A stretch of 33,284 nt of DNA from Bacillota bacterium (GTDB lineage Bacteria > Bacillota > Clostridia > Acetivibrionales > DTU013). Positions 26,220-33,284 of the stretch are shown one piece after another. The notes beneath the pieces are model-generated. The model saw only the letters and a program-made list of their open reading frames with translations. It did no database searches and was not told the DNA's origin. The position numbers and the translations under genes are program-made. The stretch lies in NCBI GenBank assembly GCA_029778665.1, contig JAKOPX010000468.1:1-33284 (forward strand). The letters are read 5' to 3'. Every line of letters starts with the position of its first letter. The stretch's first letter is position 1.

Positions 26220-26543
26220 CTATTTCAATATCTCAATGCTGTAACCCTTTCCGTTATTGTCATCCACGTTATTGAAAGTATCCTTGAAGCTGAGTTTCAG
26301 ATAATCTTCCTTCAATGCAGGTATCGTGGCTTCAAAACCTGTGTCTTTTTTTACCATCGGGATGGCCTGTTCGTTATCCCAGTTGCTTCCATAGCCCAAA
26401 TGGAGCGTTATCTCCTCGGCACCGTTTTTGGCAAGGATGCCGTCGTAAAAAACAGTTATTTTGTCTCCTACGACAGGCAAAGCCGGACTGATGGCCACTC
26501 CTTTATCCAGGTAATCCAAATTTCTGGTTTTTCTTTCGTTCAT
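26220..26543 (-). CDS. Stand-alone CBM25-like starch-binding protein
   Basis: The 107-residue product is mostly one carbohydrate-binding domain of the CBM25/CBM53 type. It shows VGDKITVFYDGILAKNGAEE, LHLGYGSNWDNEQAIPM, KKDTGFEATIP and the NNVDDNNGKGYSIE ending. It has no signal peptide, membrane helix or catalytic domain, so it is probably cytoplasmic. CBM25 binds alpha-glucans, so a link to glycogen or starch-like storage polymer is likely but unproven. The start is one of two adjacent ATGs; this one is 7 bases after an AGGGGTG site (complement of 26549-26555). The frame is open further upstream to 26903, but that part overlaps the divergent gene and looks spurious. Confidence 0.8.
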   Translation of the reverse strand: MNERKTRNLDYLDKGVAISPALPVVGDKITVFYDGILAKNGAEEITLHLGYGSNWDNEQAIPMVKKDTGFEATIPALKEDYLKLSFKDTFNNVDDNNGKGYSIEILK

Positions 26544-26760
26544 CATGTCACCCCTGTCATTTTGTGTGCTTACTGCTGCAAGGCAGTCACATATCGTCCA
26601 TGAAATAACCTCATGATGATTAGCATATACATCTCTGGATGAAAAATTCGCGGAAGAGATACATGAATGCGGAAGGCAGCGTTTACAGCAGAATTTTTTC
26701 TGTCCAATTGCCAAGACTAAATATGTGATCATCCAGAATGACAATGAGAGGACATCGAAA
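26544..26760. other. Divergent intergenic region
   Basis: These 217 bases separate the minus-strand CBM25 gene from the plus-strand nucleotidyltransferase fusion and should hold promoters for both. I could not pick a convincing -35/-10 pair on either strand. GAGAGGA (26746-26752) is the Shine-Dalgarno for the plus-strand gene. Confidence 0.5.
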
Positions 26761-29190
26761 ATGAAAGCAGTTATAATGGCAGGCGGTGAAGGCACAAGGC
26801 TGAGGCCCCTTACATGCAACAGGCCAAAGCCGATGGTGCCGGTTGCCGGAAGACCGGTCATGGAGCATACAGTCAGGTTGCTGAAAAACCACGGCATGGA
26901 CAATATAGCCGTTACGCTGCAGTATCTGCCAGATCACATAACAGAGTATTTCGGGGACGGCAGTACTTTCGGCGTGAGGATGCGGTATTATATCGAAAGC
27001 AGACCCCTTGGTACCGCAGGAAGCGTAAAAAATGCGGAGGATTTTCTCGATGAGACGTTCCTTGTGATCAGCGGTGATGCACTTACAGATATAGATCTTA
27101 TAAAGGCCGTCAGCTTTCACAGGGAAAAGGGGGCCCTGGCGACGCTGGTGCTCAAAAGGGTCGATGTGCCGCTGGAATACGGAGTAGTAGTCACGGACGA
27201 AGACGGGAGGATAATACGCTTCCTCGAAAAACCGGGCTGGGGAGAAGTGTTCAGTGATACCGTGAACACAGGCATATACATCCTGTCGCCTGAAATATTC
27301 AGCTATTACAAAAAGGACCAGGTCTTCGATTTCAGCAGGGACCTGTTTCCGCTGCTGATGAAAGAGAACAGGAAATTGTATGGTTATATAACGGATGAAT
27401 ACTGGTGCGACATAGGCGACATTAACGCATATATGCAGGCGAATTTCGATGTGATGGACAGAAAAGTAAAGGCAGACATACCTGGTACGGAAATCAGGCA
27501 GGGTGTCTGGACCGGCAGCGGAACTACAGTCGATGAGTCAGCAAGGATCGAAGGACCCTGCATAATAGGTTCCGGCTGTTATGTAAAAGAAGGCGCCGTC
27601 ATCGGCAGCCATACAGTGATCGGCGACAACTGCATCGTGGAAGAGAGCAGCAGCATCAAAAGAAGCGTGATCTGGAAAAACTCGATCATCGGTGAAAAAG
27701 CGGAAATAAGGGGCAGCGTGATATGCAGCCGCGCGGTCCTGGAAAGCGGGACATCTGCCTTTGAAGGTTCTGTCGTCGGTGAAGGATCCCATATCGGTGA
27801 AAGGACGATTATAAGGCCATCCGTGAAAATATGGCCAGGAAAGCATGTTGACATGTGCATGGAGCTTTGCGAGAACCTTGTCTGGGGTTCCAGGGCCGGA
27901 AGGAACATATTTGGCTACAGGGGAGTCACGGGGACCGTAAATACGGACATGACGCCCGAATTTGCCGCAAAACTCGCTGCTGCATTTGCAGCGGCAGTGA
28001 AAAGCAGGGGGATCATAGGAGTATGCTGCGACGGAACACCGGCGGCAACGATGATAAAAAGCGCGCTTGTTTCCGGACTGCTTTCGGCAGGAGTGCACGT
28101 GAATGATTACAGGAGGCTCCTGCTTCCTGCCCTGAGATCAGCAGTCAGGCTTTACAGGCTTGACGGAGGTATCTATGCCGGCGTATGCGGCGAAGGCAGG
28201 CACCGGCTGGCGCTGGATTTCATCGACAATGCCGGAAGGAACATAGACAAATCGACTGAAAGAAGAGTGGAAACGTTGTTTTACAGGGATGATTTCGGCC
28301 GATGCGAAGCAGGATGTATAAAAGGCGTGACTGAAATATCTGATTTCGGCGATTTTTACCTGAAAAACATAATCAGCGGGATCAGGTCGGAAAAACTGGG
28401 CTTCAGGATCGCGATGAGGAAGGGACCGGAACATGTAACAGAAGCGATAACATCACTGCTGGGAGAAACCGGTTGCTCAGTGGAGACAGTTGATGCCGGC
28501 ATCCTGAATGACATGAAACAGTTCTGCGAGTTCGTCAGGAAAGGCAGATTCGATATCGGCGTGTCCATTGGTGAAACATGCGAAAAAATGCTGCTGGTGG
28601 ATGCGTCGGGAAGGCTTGTCACCGAGGATATGTTCATGGCGCTCGTTTCCTTGGTAATCCTCAGGAAAATGAAAGGAAGTACGCTGGTCGTGCCTGTCTC
28701 GGCAAGCCAGGCCATTGAAAGGCTGGCTGAAGAGTACAACGGAAGCGTGGTACGCACCCGGACGGCAGCAAGGGACATTATGGCAGGACTGTTGGCAAAA
28801 GAAGCGAAGGAGGAACTGTTGGAACAGTTCACAATGTATTTCGACGCGGCAGCCGGACTTGTGAAACTGCTGGACTTCATGAAAACCAACAACACTTCAC
28901 TGCAGGAAATGGTTAACATGCTGCCTGAGATCCATATGCGCAGGAAGGAAGTCGAATGCAGCTGGGATGCGAAGGGCAGGGTGATAAAAAAGATAATACA
29001 GGAGCATTACGGAGGAAGGGTCGAGATGCTCGAAGGGATCAAGGTATACAACGACAAAGGCTGGGTGCTTGTCCTGCCTGATGCGGAAAGGCCTGTATGC
29101 AACGTTATCGGAGAGGGGTTTACAGAGGAATTCGCTGAAGAACTGACCAACATCTATGCCAGGAAAGTGATGGAAATAAGCCGAAGCTGA
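26761..29190 (+). CDS. Sugar-phosphate nucleotidyltransferase fused to a degenerate phosphohexomutase
   Basis: The 809-residue protein has three parts. Residues 1-235 are a nucleotidyltransferase of the mannose/glucose-1-phosphate type ([11 protein letters not shown], later [11 protein letters not shown] and [11 protein letters not shown]), which would make an NDP-sugar. Residues about 250-375 are left-handed beta-helix hexapeptide repeats ([20 protein letters not shown]). Residues about 385-809 resemble phosphomanno/phosphoglucomutase, but the active motifs are changed. The TASHNP serine position reads GVCGEG (Cys476 by hand alignment), DGDADR reads IGETCEK (603-609), and RPSGTEP reads LPDAERP (772-778). 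The mutase half is probably not catalytic. Such fusions occur in clostridia and cyanobacteria. The ATG at 26761 follows GAGAGGA by 8 bases. Confidence 0.88.
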
Positions 29191-29323: not shown

Positions 29324-30049
29324 ATGAACAAACCTGCGAGCCGTTATATTTCATTTATAGTATTCATGCTGCTGGGAACGCTCATGGCATGGCAGCTGAA
29401 AAGCACACTCAACGTAAAGAGGGCTGCTGCTTCCAATGCCCTGAATGCCAATGCCCTGAGGGAACAGATAACGGAGCTCATGCAGGATATCGATGAACTC
29501 AGGGTGGCGATCGATGAAAACATTGCGCTGCAGAATGAGATCATCAGGGAATATATAGAGCTGCAGAATGACGACCAGCTGAGGAGGGAATGGGATGTCA
29601 TCAAACTGCAGACCGGCCTTGTGGGAGTCGAAGGGCCTGGCATCAGGATAACCCTGGATGACGCTCCTGCCCGGGAGCCCGACATGCCTTTTTCCTGGTT
29701 CATCATACACGACTACGATATCAGGTCCATACTGAACGACCTGAAAATTGCAGGGGCGCAGGCTATCGCCATCAACGGGGAACGTGTCGTGCCAATGAGC
29801 GAACAGATATGTGCGGGACCGACCATAATCATCAATGGCAACAGGTATCCGGTCCCTTATGTTATCGAGGCGATCGGCGATCCTGATGCGCTGTATGAAG
29901 CCATGAACATAAGCGATAAAGTGTTGGAACTGAGGCGGTTCAATATCCAGGTAGACATAAAAAAAGCAGACAGGATACGGATATCCAAATTCAGCGGCGC
30001 TGACAAACTTGACAGGTATATTTCCGGACTGGAGGTTGTCGTAAAATGA
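29324..30049 (+). CDS. DUF881 family membrane protein, first copy (YlxW/YlxX type)
   Basis: The 241-residue protein has an N-terminal membrane helix (about 8-24), an extracytoplasmic coiled coil (about 38-90, ELMQDIDELRVAIDENIALQ), and a C-terminal DUF881 domain with the typical GPGIRITLDDA, IHDYDIRSILNDLKIAGAQA and INGERVVPMSEQICAGPTI. In B. subtilis the relatives YlxW and YlxX lie beside division genes; the function is not established. GGGAG lies about 7 bases before the ATG. The gene overlaps the second copy by four bases (ATGA). Confidence 0.85.
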   Translation: MNKPASRYISFIVFMLLGTLMAWQLKSTLNVKRAAASNALNANALREQITELMQDIDELRVAIDENIALQNEIIREYIELQNDDQLRREWDVIKLQTGLVGVEGPGIRITLDDAPAREPDMPFSWFIIHDYDIRSILNDLKIAGAQAIAINGERVVPMSEQICAGPTIIINGNRYPVPYVIEAIGDPDALYEAMNISDKVLELRRFNIQVDIKKADRIRISKFSGADKLDRYISGLEVVVK

Positions 30050-30741
30050 AAATAGCGCGCAATCTGGCGATGATGATGGTGTGTATGCTGCTGGGCATAA
30101 TGCTTGCGCTTCAGTACAAAAGCGTTAATTATAACCAGAGAATGGCCAGCCTTGAGAATAAAAGGCTTGAAGAACTCAAGGAGGAAATAATCAGGCTCCA
30201 GAACCAGAAAAATGAGCTGCAGGAAAGGTACCAGAAACTGGAGGAGGAAAACCAGACATATGCCAGGGTAAAAGCCGGCGACAGCGAAGCCGTGCAGCAA
30301 CTGAAGAACAACCTGCTGAAGGCAAGGATATTTGCAGGCCTTGAAGATGTAAAAGGAGCTGGTATAATAATCACGCTGGACGACAACTTCCCGTGGTCTG
30401 TTTCGTATTACGACATACTTGATGTCGTGAATGAGCTCAGGGCCAGCGGCGCCCAGGCGATTTCCATCAACGACGAGAGGGTCGTGGCGATGACGGAGAT
30501 CCGCGGAGCCGGGGATTACATCATGATAAACGGAAAGCAGCACAGGACGCCGTTTGTGATAAAGGCGATAGCCAATCCGAATAACCTTGAACGTGCACTG
30601 ACGATGATCGGCGGTGTTGTGGAAAACCTCGAGGCAGACGGACTTAAAGTGAGTATTAAAAAATCTGACGAGATCATAATATATAAATTCGTCGATGACG
30701 GCACTTCTATCAGGACAGATCTGCTCACACCCGTGGAATGA
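30046..30741 (+). CDS. DUF881 family membrane protein, second copy
   Basis: This tandem paralogue of 231 residues has the same layout: a membrane helix (about 5-22), a Glu/Lys/Gln-rich coiled coil (about 32-75) and a DUF881 domain (AGIIITLDD, YDILDVVNELRASGAQAISI, NDERVVAMTEIRGAGDYIMI). It diverges strongly from the first copy, so this is an old duplication as seen for ylxW/ylxX. The ATG overlaps the upstream stop, so the two proteins are probably made in fixed ratio and may form a hetero-oligomer through the coiled coils (inference). Confidence 0.85.
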   Translation: MKIARNLAMMMVCMLLGIMLALQYKSVNYNQRMASLENKRLEELKEEIIRLQNQKNELQERYQKLEEENQTYARVKAGDSEAVQQLKNNLLKARIFAGLEDVKGAGIIITLDDNFPWSVSYYDILDVVNELRASGAQAISINDERVVAMTEIRGAGDYIMINGKQHRTPFVIKAIANPNNLERALTMIGGVVENLEADGLKVSIKKSDEIIIYKFVDDGTSIRTDLLTPVE

Positions 30742-30764
30742 GGACGGCCACAAAGTAATCGGCA

Positions 30765-30836
30765 TATTTTCCGGCCTCCATAATAAAATTGTAAAAGCAG
30801 GCAATATGGCTTTTTTGCCTATTTTCCGGAGGTCGT
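30765..30836 (+). promoter_or_regulatory. Leader able to mask the pdaA Shine-Dalgarno
   Basis: CGGCCTCC (30772-30779) can pair over eight positions with GGAGGTCG (30828-30835), which contains the pdaA Shine-Dalgarno. Inside it, AGGCAA (30799-30804) can pair with TTGCCT (30815-30820), or AAAAGC (30793-30798) with GCTTTT (30809-30814). A 10-base direct repeat TATTTTCCGG occurs at 30765-30774 and 30820-30829. The layout suggests reduced translation unless the stem opens; it is read from sequence only. Confidence 0.4.
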
Positions 30837-30839
30837 ATC

Positions 30840-31901
30840 ATGAGAACTTGCAAAAAGAGCATAGAATCGGCCTGTGCCAGGACGGCCGCCGCGGCTGCCG
30901 CCTTATGCCTGGCCGTTAGTCTTTCAGGCTGTTCGGAAACAGGTAAATACAACCCTGCGCTGAGCGACCTGGGAGGTGTATACGCCAGCAGCTTCAGGGA
31001 CCTGGACCTTTCGGTCGAGATAAGCGGGAAGCTGTCTGAAGAGGATGTGGAAGACAGCAGCATATATGCGCAGGAAAACTGGGGTTCCGACGGATTTACA
31101 CAATATGACCATGATTCTGAACGTACAGTATTCGGGGAAGATGATGGATCTGCAGTTATTGCCGAAGGAGAAGTCAGCAATAAATTATTGAGATGGGGCA
31201 TATCGAGGAGACCTGACAATCTGCCGCCAAAAGCGGACCCCGGCGCTCCGGAGCTTCTTGAAAAATATGGCGGAGCATGGATAGGGGACACAGAAAAAAG
31301 TGTCATTTACCTGACATTTGATGAAGGCTACGAAAACGGATATACTCCCGTCATACTCGACACACTGGCAAAGCATAATGTCAAGGCTGTTTTTTTCATA
31401 ACGGGGCCCTATCTGAAAGAGCACCAGGACCTTGTCAGGAGAATGGCAGAAGAAGGGCATATCGTCGGGAATCACACCGTGCATCACCCGAGCCTGCCCA
31501 CTCTGGATGACAGGCAGGTGGAAGAGGAGATACTCGGCCTGGAAAGGGCATTCAGGGAGAAATTCGGCAAAGGGATGGAGTTTTTGCGTCCGCCGAAAGG
31601 AGAGTACAGTGAAAGGACTCTCCGGCTGGCCAATGATCTAGGATACTGCACCCTGTTCTGGAGCTTCGCCTATGACGACTGGTACCGGGACAAGGTAAGA
31701 GGGCCGCAGTACGCATATGACATTGTCATGCGCAACCTGCACAATGGCGCAGTTTTGTTGCTGCACGCCGTATCAAAGGATAATGCATATGCTCTGGACA
31801 GCATAATAAAAGGTGCAGCGGAGAGGGGATACAGTTTCGGGGATCCGCGCGATCTGCTGCCGTCCGGGAAGGCTGGAGATGCAACCTATGGCGAAGAATA
31901 G
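30840..31901 (+). CDS. pdaA: PdaA-type peptidoglycan N-acetylmuramic acid de-N-acetylase, lipoprotein form
   Basis: PdaA removes the acetyl group from muramic acid residues during formation of the muramic delta-lactam of spore cortex. The 353-residue protein has a signal peptide with a lipobox (LSGC, Cys31), a spacer of about 110 acidic residues and a NodB domain. The PdaA form of motif 1 is LTFDEGYENGYT (D161), metal ligands are H212 and H216 in GNHTVHHPS, then RPPKGEYS and LLHAVS. CGGAGGT lies about 6 bases before the ATG. The B. subtilis enzyme has an ordinary signal sequence and no lipobox as far as I recall. The gene's end overlaps yqfC. Confidence 0.9.
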   Translation: MRTCKKSIESACARTAAAAAALCLAVSLSGCSETGKYNPALSDLGGVYASSFRDLDLSVEISGKLSEEDVEDSSIYAQENWGSDGFTQYDHDSERTVFGEDDGSAVIAEGEVSNKLLRWGISRRPDNLPPKADPGAPELLEKYGGAWIGDTEKSVIYLTFDEGYENGYTPVILDTLAKHNVKAVFFITGPYLKEHQDLVRRMAEEGHIVGNHTVHHPSLPTLDDRQVEEEILGLERAFREKFGKGMEFLRPPKGEYSERTLRLANDLGYCTLFWSFAYDDWYRDKVRGPQYAYDIVMRNLHNGAVLLLHAVSKDNAYALDSIIKGAAERGYSFGDPRDLLPSGKAGDATYGEE

Positions 31902-32226
31902 CGCGGCTGATGCCAAGGGAGGCAAAAAAGCGGACGGGAACAGGAGCGCCGGCAAAAAAAGCGTAAAGGAAAAATTCACGGAAATGCTGGAACTCCCCAA
32001 GGACCTGGTCCTGGACCGCCCTAAACTGACTCTCATCGGCAACAGGGATATGATGATCGAAAACTACAAATCTGTACTGGAATACGATACCGGTATCCTG
32101 AGAATAAACACGGGAACCGGTGTCATCAGGATTACAGGGTCTGACCTCTCGATAAGGGAAATCACTTCCGATGATATCGTTGTATCAGGAATGGTCCGCT
32201 CAGTCGAATTCATCGATGCGGGGTGA
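31888..32226 (+). CDS. yqfC: Sporulation protein YqfC
   Basis: YqfC is a small protein made under mother-cell control (sigma-E in B. subtilis) and required for efficient sporulation; its mechanism is unclear. The 112-residue product matches the family core (FTEMLELPKDLVLDRPKLTL, IGNRDMMIENYKSVLEY, IRITGSDLSIREI). It has an added N-terminal stretch of about 30 Lys/Ala/Gly-rich residues (AKNSAADAKGGKKADGNRSA). The start at 31888 lies inside the end of pdaA, 9 bases after GGAG (31875-31878); ATG 31879 is an alternative. Overlap on both sides suggests coupling with pdaA and yqfD. Confidence 0.87.
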   Translation: MAKNSAADAKGGKKADGNRSAGKKSVKEKFTEMLELPKDLVLDRPKLTLIGNRDMMIENYKSVLEYDTGILRINTGTGVIRITGSDLSIREITSDDIVVSGMVRSVEFIDAG

Positions 32227-32231
32227 AATTC

Positions 32232-33284
32232 TTGCTGTTCAGATTGTGGAATTATCTGCGCGGATATGTTATTATTATAATCGAAGGCTTTTTCATAGAG
32301 AAATTCATAAACATCTGCGCCAGACGCCGGATACACCTGTGGGATGTCAGGCTCCAGAGCGAGCGTCGGGTGACGGCGAGGATGAGCATCAGCGGATTCA
32401 GGCTCATCAGGCCTGTCGCCAGGAAGACAGGATGCAGGGTGAGGCTGCTGAGGAAAAGGGGCCTGCCGTTTGTGTTCAGCAAGTATCGCAGACGGAAGGC
32501 GTTTTTTGCTGGAGCGGTTTTGTTTTTTATACTGATAAACGTGCTTGCGTCTTTTGTGTGGAGCATAGAGATCACCGGCAATGAGAAGCTGGATACGGTT
32601 TTCCTTGAAAACGCGCTGGCAGCCAACGGCATCAGGACAGGAGCGCTGAAATACAGGATCGATACCCGCCGCGCTGTTGAAAGGATGATGCTGGAAATCG
32701 GCAGGCTGTCCTGGATCAGCATAAGTATAAAAGGAACAAAGGTGAAGGTAGAGGTAAGGGAACGCGGTGACATACCGGAAATAGTGCCGAGGCATATACC
32801 ATGTGACATTGTTGCCTTGAGGGACGGCATTATCAGGCAGGTCATCGCAAAGGAGGGTATCGAGGCAGTATCGGAAGGAGATACTGTGAAAAAGGGGCAG
32901 GTGCTTATATCAGGACGCGTCCCTGTTAAAGGGGAAGAACAGTACCGGCTGGTACATGCGATGGGGACCGTCAGCGCGAGGACATGGTATGAGGACGAAG
33001 CGCCCGTCGTCCTTACCAGGACTGAGACGGTCAGGACAGGCAGGGCGATAAGGGATCACTCGCTGATACTGTTTTCAAAAGAGCTTGACCTGATAAGGAA
33101 AAAGGTCAGGTTCAGCGAGTATGTTACAGAGGAATCAAGGAAAAAACTCAGCATAGGCGATGACCTGGTTTTCCCGTTTGAATGGGTGACCGTCACCCAT
33201 TTCGAAGTCGCGACACTGGAAGCCAGTATCAGCGAAGAGGATGCGAGGGAAACGGCGGCAAGGGAAGCGTATGAAAAAGCGCTG
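32232..33284 (+). CDS. yqfD: Sporulation protein YqfD, 5' part (partial)
   Basis: The frame stays open to the window edge (351 codons visible), so the gene is cut. It begins LLFRLWNYLRGYVIIIIEGF, has a membrane helix at about 92-110 (KAFFAGAVLFFILINVLASF), a FtsQ/POTRA-like extracytoplasmic stretch (VWSIEITGNEKL) and the family's V..RDGII..VI...G...V..GD.VKKGQVLI segment. This matches YqfD, a mother-cell sporulation membrane protein always found after yqfC. The start is TTG 32232, with GGGGTGA (32220-32226) 5 bases upstream. GTG 32223, which overlaps the yqfC stop, is an alternative adding three residues. phoH would be expected next. Confidence 0.88.
   Translation, partial: MLFRLWNYLRGYVIIIIEGFFIEKFINICARRRIHLWDVRLQSERRVTARMSISGFRLIRPVARKTGCRVRLLRKRGLPFVFSKYRRRKAFFAGAVLFFILINVLASFVWSIEITGNEKLDTVFLENALAANGIRTGALKYRIDTRRAVERMMLEIGRLSWISISIKGTKVKVEVRERGDIPEIVPRHIPCDIVALRDGIIRQVIAKEGIEAVSEGDTVKKGQVLISGRVPVKGEEQYRLVHAMGTVSARTWYEDEAPVVLTRTETVRTGRAIRDHSLILFSKELDLIRKKVRFSEYVTEESRKKLSIGDDLVFPFEWVTVTHFEVATLEASISEEDARETAAREAYEKAL

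What the first reader, a model, noticed from the sequence alone, without database searches (positions are those of the whole stretch)
26761..29190. Nucleotidyltransferase fused to a mutase-like domain with all three active motifs lost
The C-terminal half has the phosphohexomutase fold order, but the phosphoserine site reads GVCGEG with Cys476, the metal loop DGDADR reads IGETCEK, and the phosphate-binding RPSGTEP reads LPDAERP. The N-terminal nucleotidyltransferase motifs are intact. A long domain kept in frame without catalytic residues suggests a regulatory or sugar-phosphate sensing role. Cysteine at the phospho-acceptor place is also notable.
Basis: partly seen in the sequence, partly recalled or inferred. 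Interest (0 to 1): 0.5.

Follow-up and report, generated by a model that had tools for sequence, protein, structure and literature searches.

The report
Sugar-activating enzyme with dead mutase domain
This bacterial gene joins an apparently working sugar-activating enzyme to a second enzyme domain that keeps its shape but has lost its whole catalytic machinery, a state shared by its sampled relatives, so the second half probably serves as a structural or regulatory part.

Summary
Gene 26761-29190 (+, 809 aa) is NTP_transferase + beta-helix + a complete phosphohexomutase fold (AF2 pLDDT 85.8; Z 41.1 to 9du5). Alignments put GVCGEG at TASHNP, GETCEK at DGDADR and LPDAERP at RPSGTEP; a fourth loop, GExSGH, is deleted. 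It is a family trait: 142 distinct family domains keep at most 3 of 15 active-site residues, while 21 of 23 canonical mutases keep 15; nucleotidyltransferase residues stay in 147-148 of 150 rows. The domain is under purifying selection (dN/dS 0.11 in the least saturated pair). The sensing idea is weakened: the phosphate loop has become acidic and the sugar loop is gone; Cys476 is Cys in 8 of 142, Ser in 63. Neighbours (CBM53 in 21 of 65 loci, a GT4 in 15 of 65, controls 0 of 30) hint at alpha-glucan supply, but that GT4 was not found in the window's genus. Most likely: a scaffold or allosteric domain on an NDP-sugar pyrophosphorylase. The fusion itself is common.

The parts
26761..29190 (+). 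whole gene, 809 aa plus stop: NDP-sugar pyrophosphorylase fused to a pseudo-phosphohexomutase
   Evidence: one-piece relatives at 50% identity or more in 52 of 58 genomes of the order, own included
26764..27453 (+). NTP_transferase domain (residues 2-231), catalytic residues intact
   Evidence: Pfam 192.7 bits; G9, G11, R13, K23, D106, D217 kept in 147-148 of 150 rows
27496..27810 (+). left-handed parallel beta-helix (residues 246-350)
   Evidence: Pfam LbH_EIF2B 66.1 bits, Hexapep 48.1 bits
27904..29187 (+). phosphohexomutase-like domain (residues 382-809), complete fold, no active site
   Evidence: Pfam PGM_PMM_I and III, TIGR03990 178.9 bits, cut-off 439, AF2 model and Z 41.1 to 9du5
28180..28197 (+). 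former phosphoserine loop TASHNP, reads GVCGEG (474-479, Cys476)
28570..28587 (+). former metal loop DGDADR, reads GETCEK (604-609)
28795..28818 (+). place of the sugar-recognition loop GGExSGH, largely deleted (around 679-686)
29074..29094 (+). former phosphate-binding loop RPSGTEP, reads LPDAERP (772-778)
   Evidence: L772, P773, D774 conserved in the family
26220..26546 (-). context, not part of the protein: divergent small CBM53 (starch/carbohydrate-binding) protein
   Evidence: Pfam CBM53 37.2 bits, cut-off 27.6; start chosen by reading the frame; a like protein within 1.5 kb in 21 of 65 fusion loci, 0 of 30 controls

Best explanation
An NDP-sugar pyrophosphorylase whose C-terminal half is a pseudo-phosphohexomutase. 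The N-terminal domain joins a sugar-1-phosphate to a nucleotide (shown only as intact motifs); the beta-helix probably drives oligomerisation (inferred from families with such domains). The mutase-like domain is nearest to archaeal GlmM-type mutases, lost the phosphoserine, metal, sugar and phosphate loops before the sampled family diversified (inferred from the counted members sharing the loss), and now works without mutase chemistry, most likely as a scaffold or allosteric domain through a newly conserved surface (inferred). The activated sugar is probably NDP-glucose or similar for alpha-glucan-type synthesis (inferred from gene neighbours, weakest step).
For: All four active-site loops lost: at most 3 of 15 residues in 142 of 142 distinct domains; 15 of 15 in 21 of 23 canonical mutases, 14 and 12 in the other two. 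Fold intact. Purifying selection: dN/dS 0.114 (PGM-like), 0.143 (LbH), 0.052 (NTase) in the pair with dS about 1. 29 positions conserved in the family but not in canonical mutases, among them L772 and D774 in the old phosphate loop, C733, W735, W768. All 142 lie in one group apart from the canonical mutases, an archaeal GlmM nearest. The genome has an intact PGM and a GlmM cut by a contig end. CBM53 protein near the fusion in 21 of 65 loci, a glycogen-synthase-like GT4 in 15 of 65, 0 of 30 controls each; GH57 branching enzyme and GH15 near one.
Against: No experiment. The scaffold/allosteric step is not shown; conserved positions could not be mapped in three dimensions. The GT4 is not found at E 1e-60 in the window's genome or its 4 genus mates, and the CBM53 protein is not found near the fusion in L166-L168 of the same genus. 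NTase substrate unresolved: best curated model is a mannose-1-P guanylyltransferase, under its cut-off; best solved chain is a UTP-glucose-1-P uridylyltransferase. Support printed for the family node was only 0.5 after rerooting. One close relative has an in-frame stop, some loci look split.
Confidence: 0.6

Rival explanations
1. The C-domain still binds a sugar phosphate or nucleotide sugar in the old cleft and reports it to the nucleotidyltransferase.
For: Fold kept; L772, P773, D774 and E608 in two old loops are conserved.
Against: Phosphate-binding R, S, T replaced mostly by L, D, E/D; R426 and K486 of canonical mutases lost; sugar loop deleted in 136 of 142; Ser-loop entropy 2.7-3.7 bits against 1.96 for its domain.
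Confidence: 0.2
2. The domain is a true mutase with an unusual active site (Cys or another nucleophile), so the protein is bifunctional.
For: Whole fold kept under selection; such proteins are called bifunctional in databases (recalled).
Against: Position 476 is S 63, D 19, G 11, A 9, C 8 of 142; the DxDxD triad is never complete (2 of 3 in 5 of 142, fewer in the rest).
Confidence: 0.04
3. Inert remnant: the fused domain is decaying and has no role.
For: One close relative (L006/L008) has an in-frame stop near residue 749; a few loci appear split.
Against: One-piece relatives at 50% identity or more in 52 of 58 genomes of the order; dN/dS about 0.1; 29 newly conserved positions.
Confidence: 0.06

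Closest known systems
Database family of NTP_transferase + LbH + PGM-like fusions ('MPG1 transferase', CDD cd05805; recalled, not looked up)
   Same: Domain order
   Different: Described there (recalled) as bifunctional; here the sampled members lack mutase catalytic residues
Archaeal phosphohexomutases / GlmM (9du5, 1wqa, 2f7l; TIGR03990)
   Same: Nearest fold and sequence (Z 39-41, 24-25% identity)
   Different: 9du5 and 1wqa show the motif residues in the alignments, and archaeal GlmM L143 is among the canonical set; this domain has lost all four loops
Mannose-1-P guanylyltransferases / UTP-glucose-1-P uridylyltransferase (NF052502, 8x7s, 7x8j)
   Same: N-terminal NTase and beta-helix
   Different: Chains of 376-401 residues (8x7s, 7x8j), matched only by the NTase and helix part; NF052502 score under its cut-off
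PGM5 (6y8x, listed; its lack of activity recalled)
   Same: Mutase fold with reduced or absent activity
   Different: Free-standing, and by recall much less altered at the active site; here the loops are gone and the domain is fused
GMPPA/GMPPB complex (7d72; regulatory role of GMPPA recalled)
   Same: A non-catalytic part regulating a nucleotidyltransferase (the possible likeness)
   Different: There the regulator is a nucleotidyltransferase-like subunit, not a mutase

Membership tests
NDP-sugar pyrophosphorylase (NTP_transferase + LbH) | Pfam domain over cut-off and catalytic residues present | tested here: met
   192.7 bits vs 21.2; G9, G11, R13, K23, D106, D217 present
NDP-sugar pyrophosphorylase (NTP_transferase + LbH) | nucleotidyl transfer activity and sugar specificity | not testable with these tools
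   needs an assay; no curated cut-off reached among the 25 of 67 models shown
alpha-D-phosphohexomutase superfamily | four-domain fold | tested here: met
   AF2 pLDDT 85.8; Z 41.1, rmsd 2.4 over 420 residues to 9du5; canonical mutases were in the folding alignment
alpha-D-phosphohexomutase superfamily | phosphoserine loop TASHNP | tested here: not met
   GVCGEG
alpha-D-phosphohexomutase superfamily | metal loop DGDADR | tested here: not met
   GETCEK
alpha-D-phosphohexomutase superfamily | sugar loop GExSGH | tested here: not met
   deleted; gap at G and E in 136 of 142
alpha-D-phosphohexomutase superfamily | phosphate loop RPSGTEP | tested here: not met
   LPDAERP
phosphoglucosamine mutase GlmM (TIGR03990) | score over the curated cut-off | tested here: not met
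   178.9-180.6 bits vs 439
mannose-1-phosphate guanylyltransferase (NF052502) | score over the curated cut-off | tested here: not met
   259 bits vs 440
NTase/PGM-like fusion family (cd05805, recalled) | same full-length architecture in relatives | tested here: met
   full-length relatives in the window's order, class and phylum and in Streptomyces, Nonomuraea and Sulfuricurvum records; the CDD model itself was not run
allosteric regulator of a nucleotidyltransferase | ligand- or partner-dependent change of NTase activity | not testable with these tools
   none

The most novel reading that the evidence does not exclude
The family is a widespread bacterial class of fused pseudo-mutases: an enzyme domain converted, before the sampled members diverged, into an obligate scaffold or allosteric part that ties NDP-sugar supply to an alpha-glucan apparatus (GT4, CBM53, branching enzyme), so that 'bifunctional' labels on such proteins are wrong.
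Probability: 0.3. Interest if true: 0.55.

Novelty: new variant of a known kind. Interest (0 to 1): 0.33.

Why it matters
If right, a common bacterial protein class would be wrongly credited with mutase activity in annotation and metabolic models, and it offers a clean natural case of an enzyme domain repurposed as a non-catalytic partner, with an intact catalytic domain on the same chain as internal control.

Tried and rejected
Intact motifs elsewhere in the domain: three alignments give the same register, and the C-domain sequence shown holds no TASHNP, DGDADR or RPSGTEP. Phosphocysteine nucleophile: rejected, Cys is not conserved. A loss confined to this lineage: rejected, the sampled relatives share it. 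A solved fusion structure: 175 chains matched the family profile, 60 were shown, and the best stretch of none of the 60 spans both halves. An 877-aa frame with a mutase domain (L227; 789 residues read) looked like an intact fusion; the piece begins with a phosphoglucomutase and ends in an acidic tail, with no NTase in it. Phage collection: 5 weak hits (20-22% identity), not followed. PHROGs: 4 families of unknown function. Literature: ten searches of the held library listed no paper on a dead mutase domain in these fusions; only listings were seen, no paper was opened, and the library lacks most subscription journals, so absence from print is not established. A full-length alignment meant for folding misplaced the mutase rows on the NTase half and was not used.

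Rows dropped: of 151 rows (window plus 150 loci), L007 (the window again) and L139 were left out by id, and L008 and L161 failed the length filter; 147 remained, 142 distinct. L139 and L161 are degenerate too, and L008 is cut before the phosphate loop and degenerate in the other two. The canonical set was picked by having [TS][AG]SHNP, so its SHNP score is partly by construction; of 33 loci tried 3 lacked that exact pattern and 7 long forms were set aside, leaving 23. Those 3 read SASHNS with the other three loops intact. Some loci repeat a genome, so 142 counts sequences, not genomes. In one search, 150 rows were counted (L007 left out). A4 used 13 of the 16 viral-contig loci.

Full report
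What is there. The gene at 26761-29190 on the + strand encodes 809 residues. Pfam finds NTP_transferase at 2-231 (192.7 bits), a left-handed beta-helix at 246-350, PGM_PMM_I at 382-512 and PGM_PMM_III at 623-718, the last just under its cut-off in the protein scan (20.5 vs 20.7) and over it in the genome scan (23.6). Against NCBIfam the C-domain is nearest to archaeal GlmM (TIGR03990, 178.9 bits), far under the cut-off of 439. The window is a whole contig of a draft genome of 2.43 Mb in 562 contigs, 83.9% complete. The nearest named record found is a Clostridiaceae metagenome-assembled genome, 78% identical.

The motifs. An alignment with 23 canonical mutases and one with 13 mutases from viral contigs give the same register. 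In addition the sugar loop GExSGH is deleted, and canonical basic residues at 390, 426 and 486 are lost. The predicted structure of the C-domain has mean pLDDT 85.8 and pTM 0.84. It matches 9du5 with Z 41.1, rmsd 2.4 over 420 residues and TM 0.87. The folding alignment contained canonical mutases, so the model supports the fold but not details of the cleft.

It is a family trait. All 58 genomes of the order match the query; 52 (own included) carry a one-piece match at 50% identity or more, others carry it in pieces or only as the 43% paralogue, two (G055, G056) show only weak matches; many genomes have a second paralogue at about 42-45%. At class level 63 of 196 genomes match at E 1e-80 or better, at phylum level 122 of 199 at 1e-60, some of them by NTase-only matches. 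In the plasmid collection 8 of 1586 matching records cover at least 80% of the query: four Streptomyces, one Nonomuraea (an 11.85-Mb record), one Sulfuricurvum, and two archaeal records in which glmM and glmU are separate neighbours; I fetched the fusions of two Streptomyces, the Nonomuraea and the Sulfuricurvum record. In 142 distinct C-domains the number of active-site residues kept out of 15 is 0 in 23, 1 in 76, 2 in 39 and 3 in 4; canonical mutases keep 15 in 21 of 23, 14 and 12 in the other two. The canonical set was picked by its serine motif, so only the other three loops are an unbiased contrast; three more mutases without the exact motif also have those loops. The NTase residues G9, G11, R13, K23, D106 and D217 are kept in 147-148 of 150 rows. 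Position 476 is Ser in 63, Asp in 19, Gly in 11, Ala in 9, Cys in 8 of 142, so the cysteine is a local substitution. FastTree puts all 142 in one group apart from the canonical mutases, an archaeal GlmM nearest; the support printed for that node after rerooting was only 0.5 and I do not lean on it.

Is it maintained? Mean entropy per position is 1.20 bits in the NTase, 2.03 in the beta-helix and 1.96, 2.68, 2.27, 1.94 in the four mutase-like domains; the old serine loop (474-481) has 2.7-3.7, while W768, P773 and D774 at the old phosphate loop have 0.28, 0.14 and 0.55. Nei-Gojobori dN/dS against the least saturated relative (L010, dS about 1) is 0.052, 0.143 and 0.114 for NTase, beta-helix and mutase-like domain; the other five pairs are saturated or near it. 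Twenty-nine positions are conserved in the family (80% or more) but rare in canonical mutases (10% or less), one of them where most canonical sequences have no residue; 29 others are conserved in both. So the domain is under purifying selection with new constraints. Against this, L006/L008 has an in-frame stop near residue 749 and a few loci look split; either could be assembly error.

Neighbours. A small CBM53 protein lies divergently upstream (26220-26546; Pfam 37.2 bits; start read). A like protein is within 1.5 kb of the fusion in 21 of 65 loci: 17 of 29 order loci (L008-L036), 4 of 27 in the class sample (L083-L109, two of the four being genomes of the order), 0 of 9 in the phylum sample (L130-L138). 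It is in 10 of 21 wider loci and in 0 of 30 control loci around canonical mutases. A GT4 resembling glycogen synthase (glgA_Coryne 158-177 bits, cut-off 302) flanks the fusion in 15 of 65, including 9 of 9 phylum-sample loci (six genera), and 0 of 30 controls. Genomes that trained these two profiles are among those tested. One locus also has a GH57 branching enzyme and a GH15 enzyme (L185). Against the link, the GT4 is absent at E 1e-60 from the window's genome and its 4 genus mates, though present in 17 of 30 relatives, and the CBM53 protein is not found near the fusion in L166-L168. Downstream in the window are two DUF881 genes, a PdaA-like deacetylase, a YabP-family gene and YqfD, a sporulation-type cluster; the PdaA-like gene follows in 12 of the 13 order loci.

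Mechanism. Shown: intact NTase motifs, lost mutase loops, kept fold (predicted), selection. Inferred: the NTase makes an NDP-sugar, perhaps NDP-glucose for alpha-glucan synthesis; the C-domain acts as scaffold or allosteric part. Binding of sugar phosphates in the old cleft is made less likely by an acidic loop where phosphate used to bind and a missing sugar loop, but is not excluded. The mutase fold has a precedent as an interaction partner in CdaA-GlmM complexes (7olh, 7ojs, 9g69; titles).

Novelty. The architecture is known in databases (cd05805, recalled) and common here. That the mutase half is dead across the sampled family I did not find in ten searches of the held library (listings only), which does not prove it is unpublished. 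I rate it a new variant of a known kind with modest interest.

Noticed in passing
window 29324-33284: Two DUF881 genes, a PdaA-like deacetylase, a YabP-family gene and YqfD follow the fusion; a PhoH gene follows further on in 11 of the 21 loci compared.
   Followed up: partly
L006 / L008 (same contig), near residue 749 of the fusion: In-frame stop in a close relative at 78% identity; may be an assembly error or loss of the last 60 residues.
   Followed up: no
L063-L082 (second paralogue in the order): A second fusion paralogue at about 42-45% identity in many genomes of the order, not listed for the window's own genome, also without mutase residues; one copy (G057:C93) lies beside the GT4.
   Followed up: partly
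L229-L244: Sixteen contigs of a viral collection encode mutase relatives; 15 of 16 show all four mutase loops, L242 is too short to tell. Host DNA in predicted proviruses is a guess.
   Followed up: partly
L227: Phosphoglucomutase with a long acidic, alanine- and glutamate-rich C-terminal tail (877-aa frame, 789 residues read).
   Followed up: no
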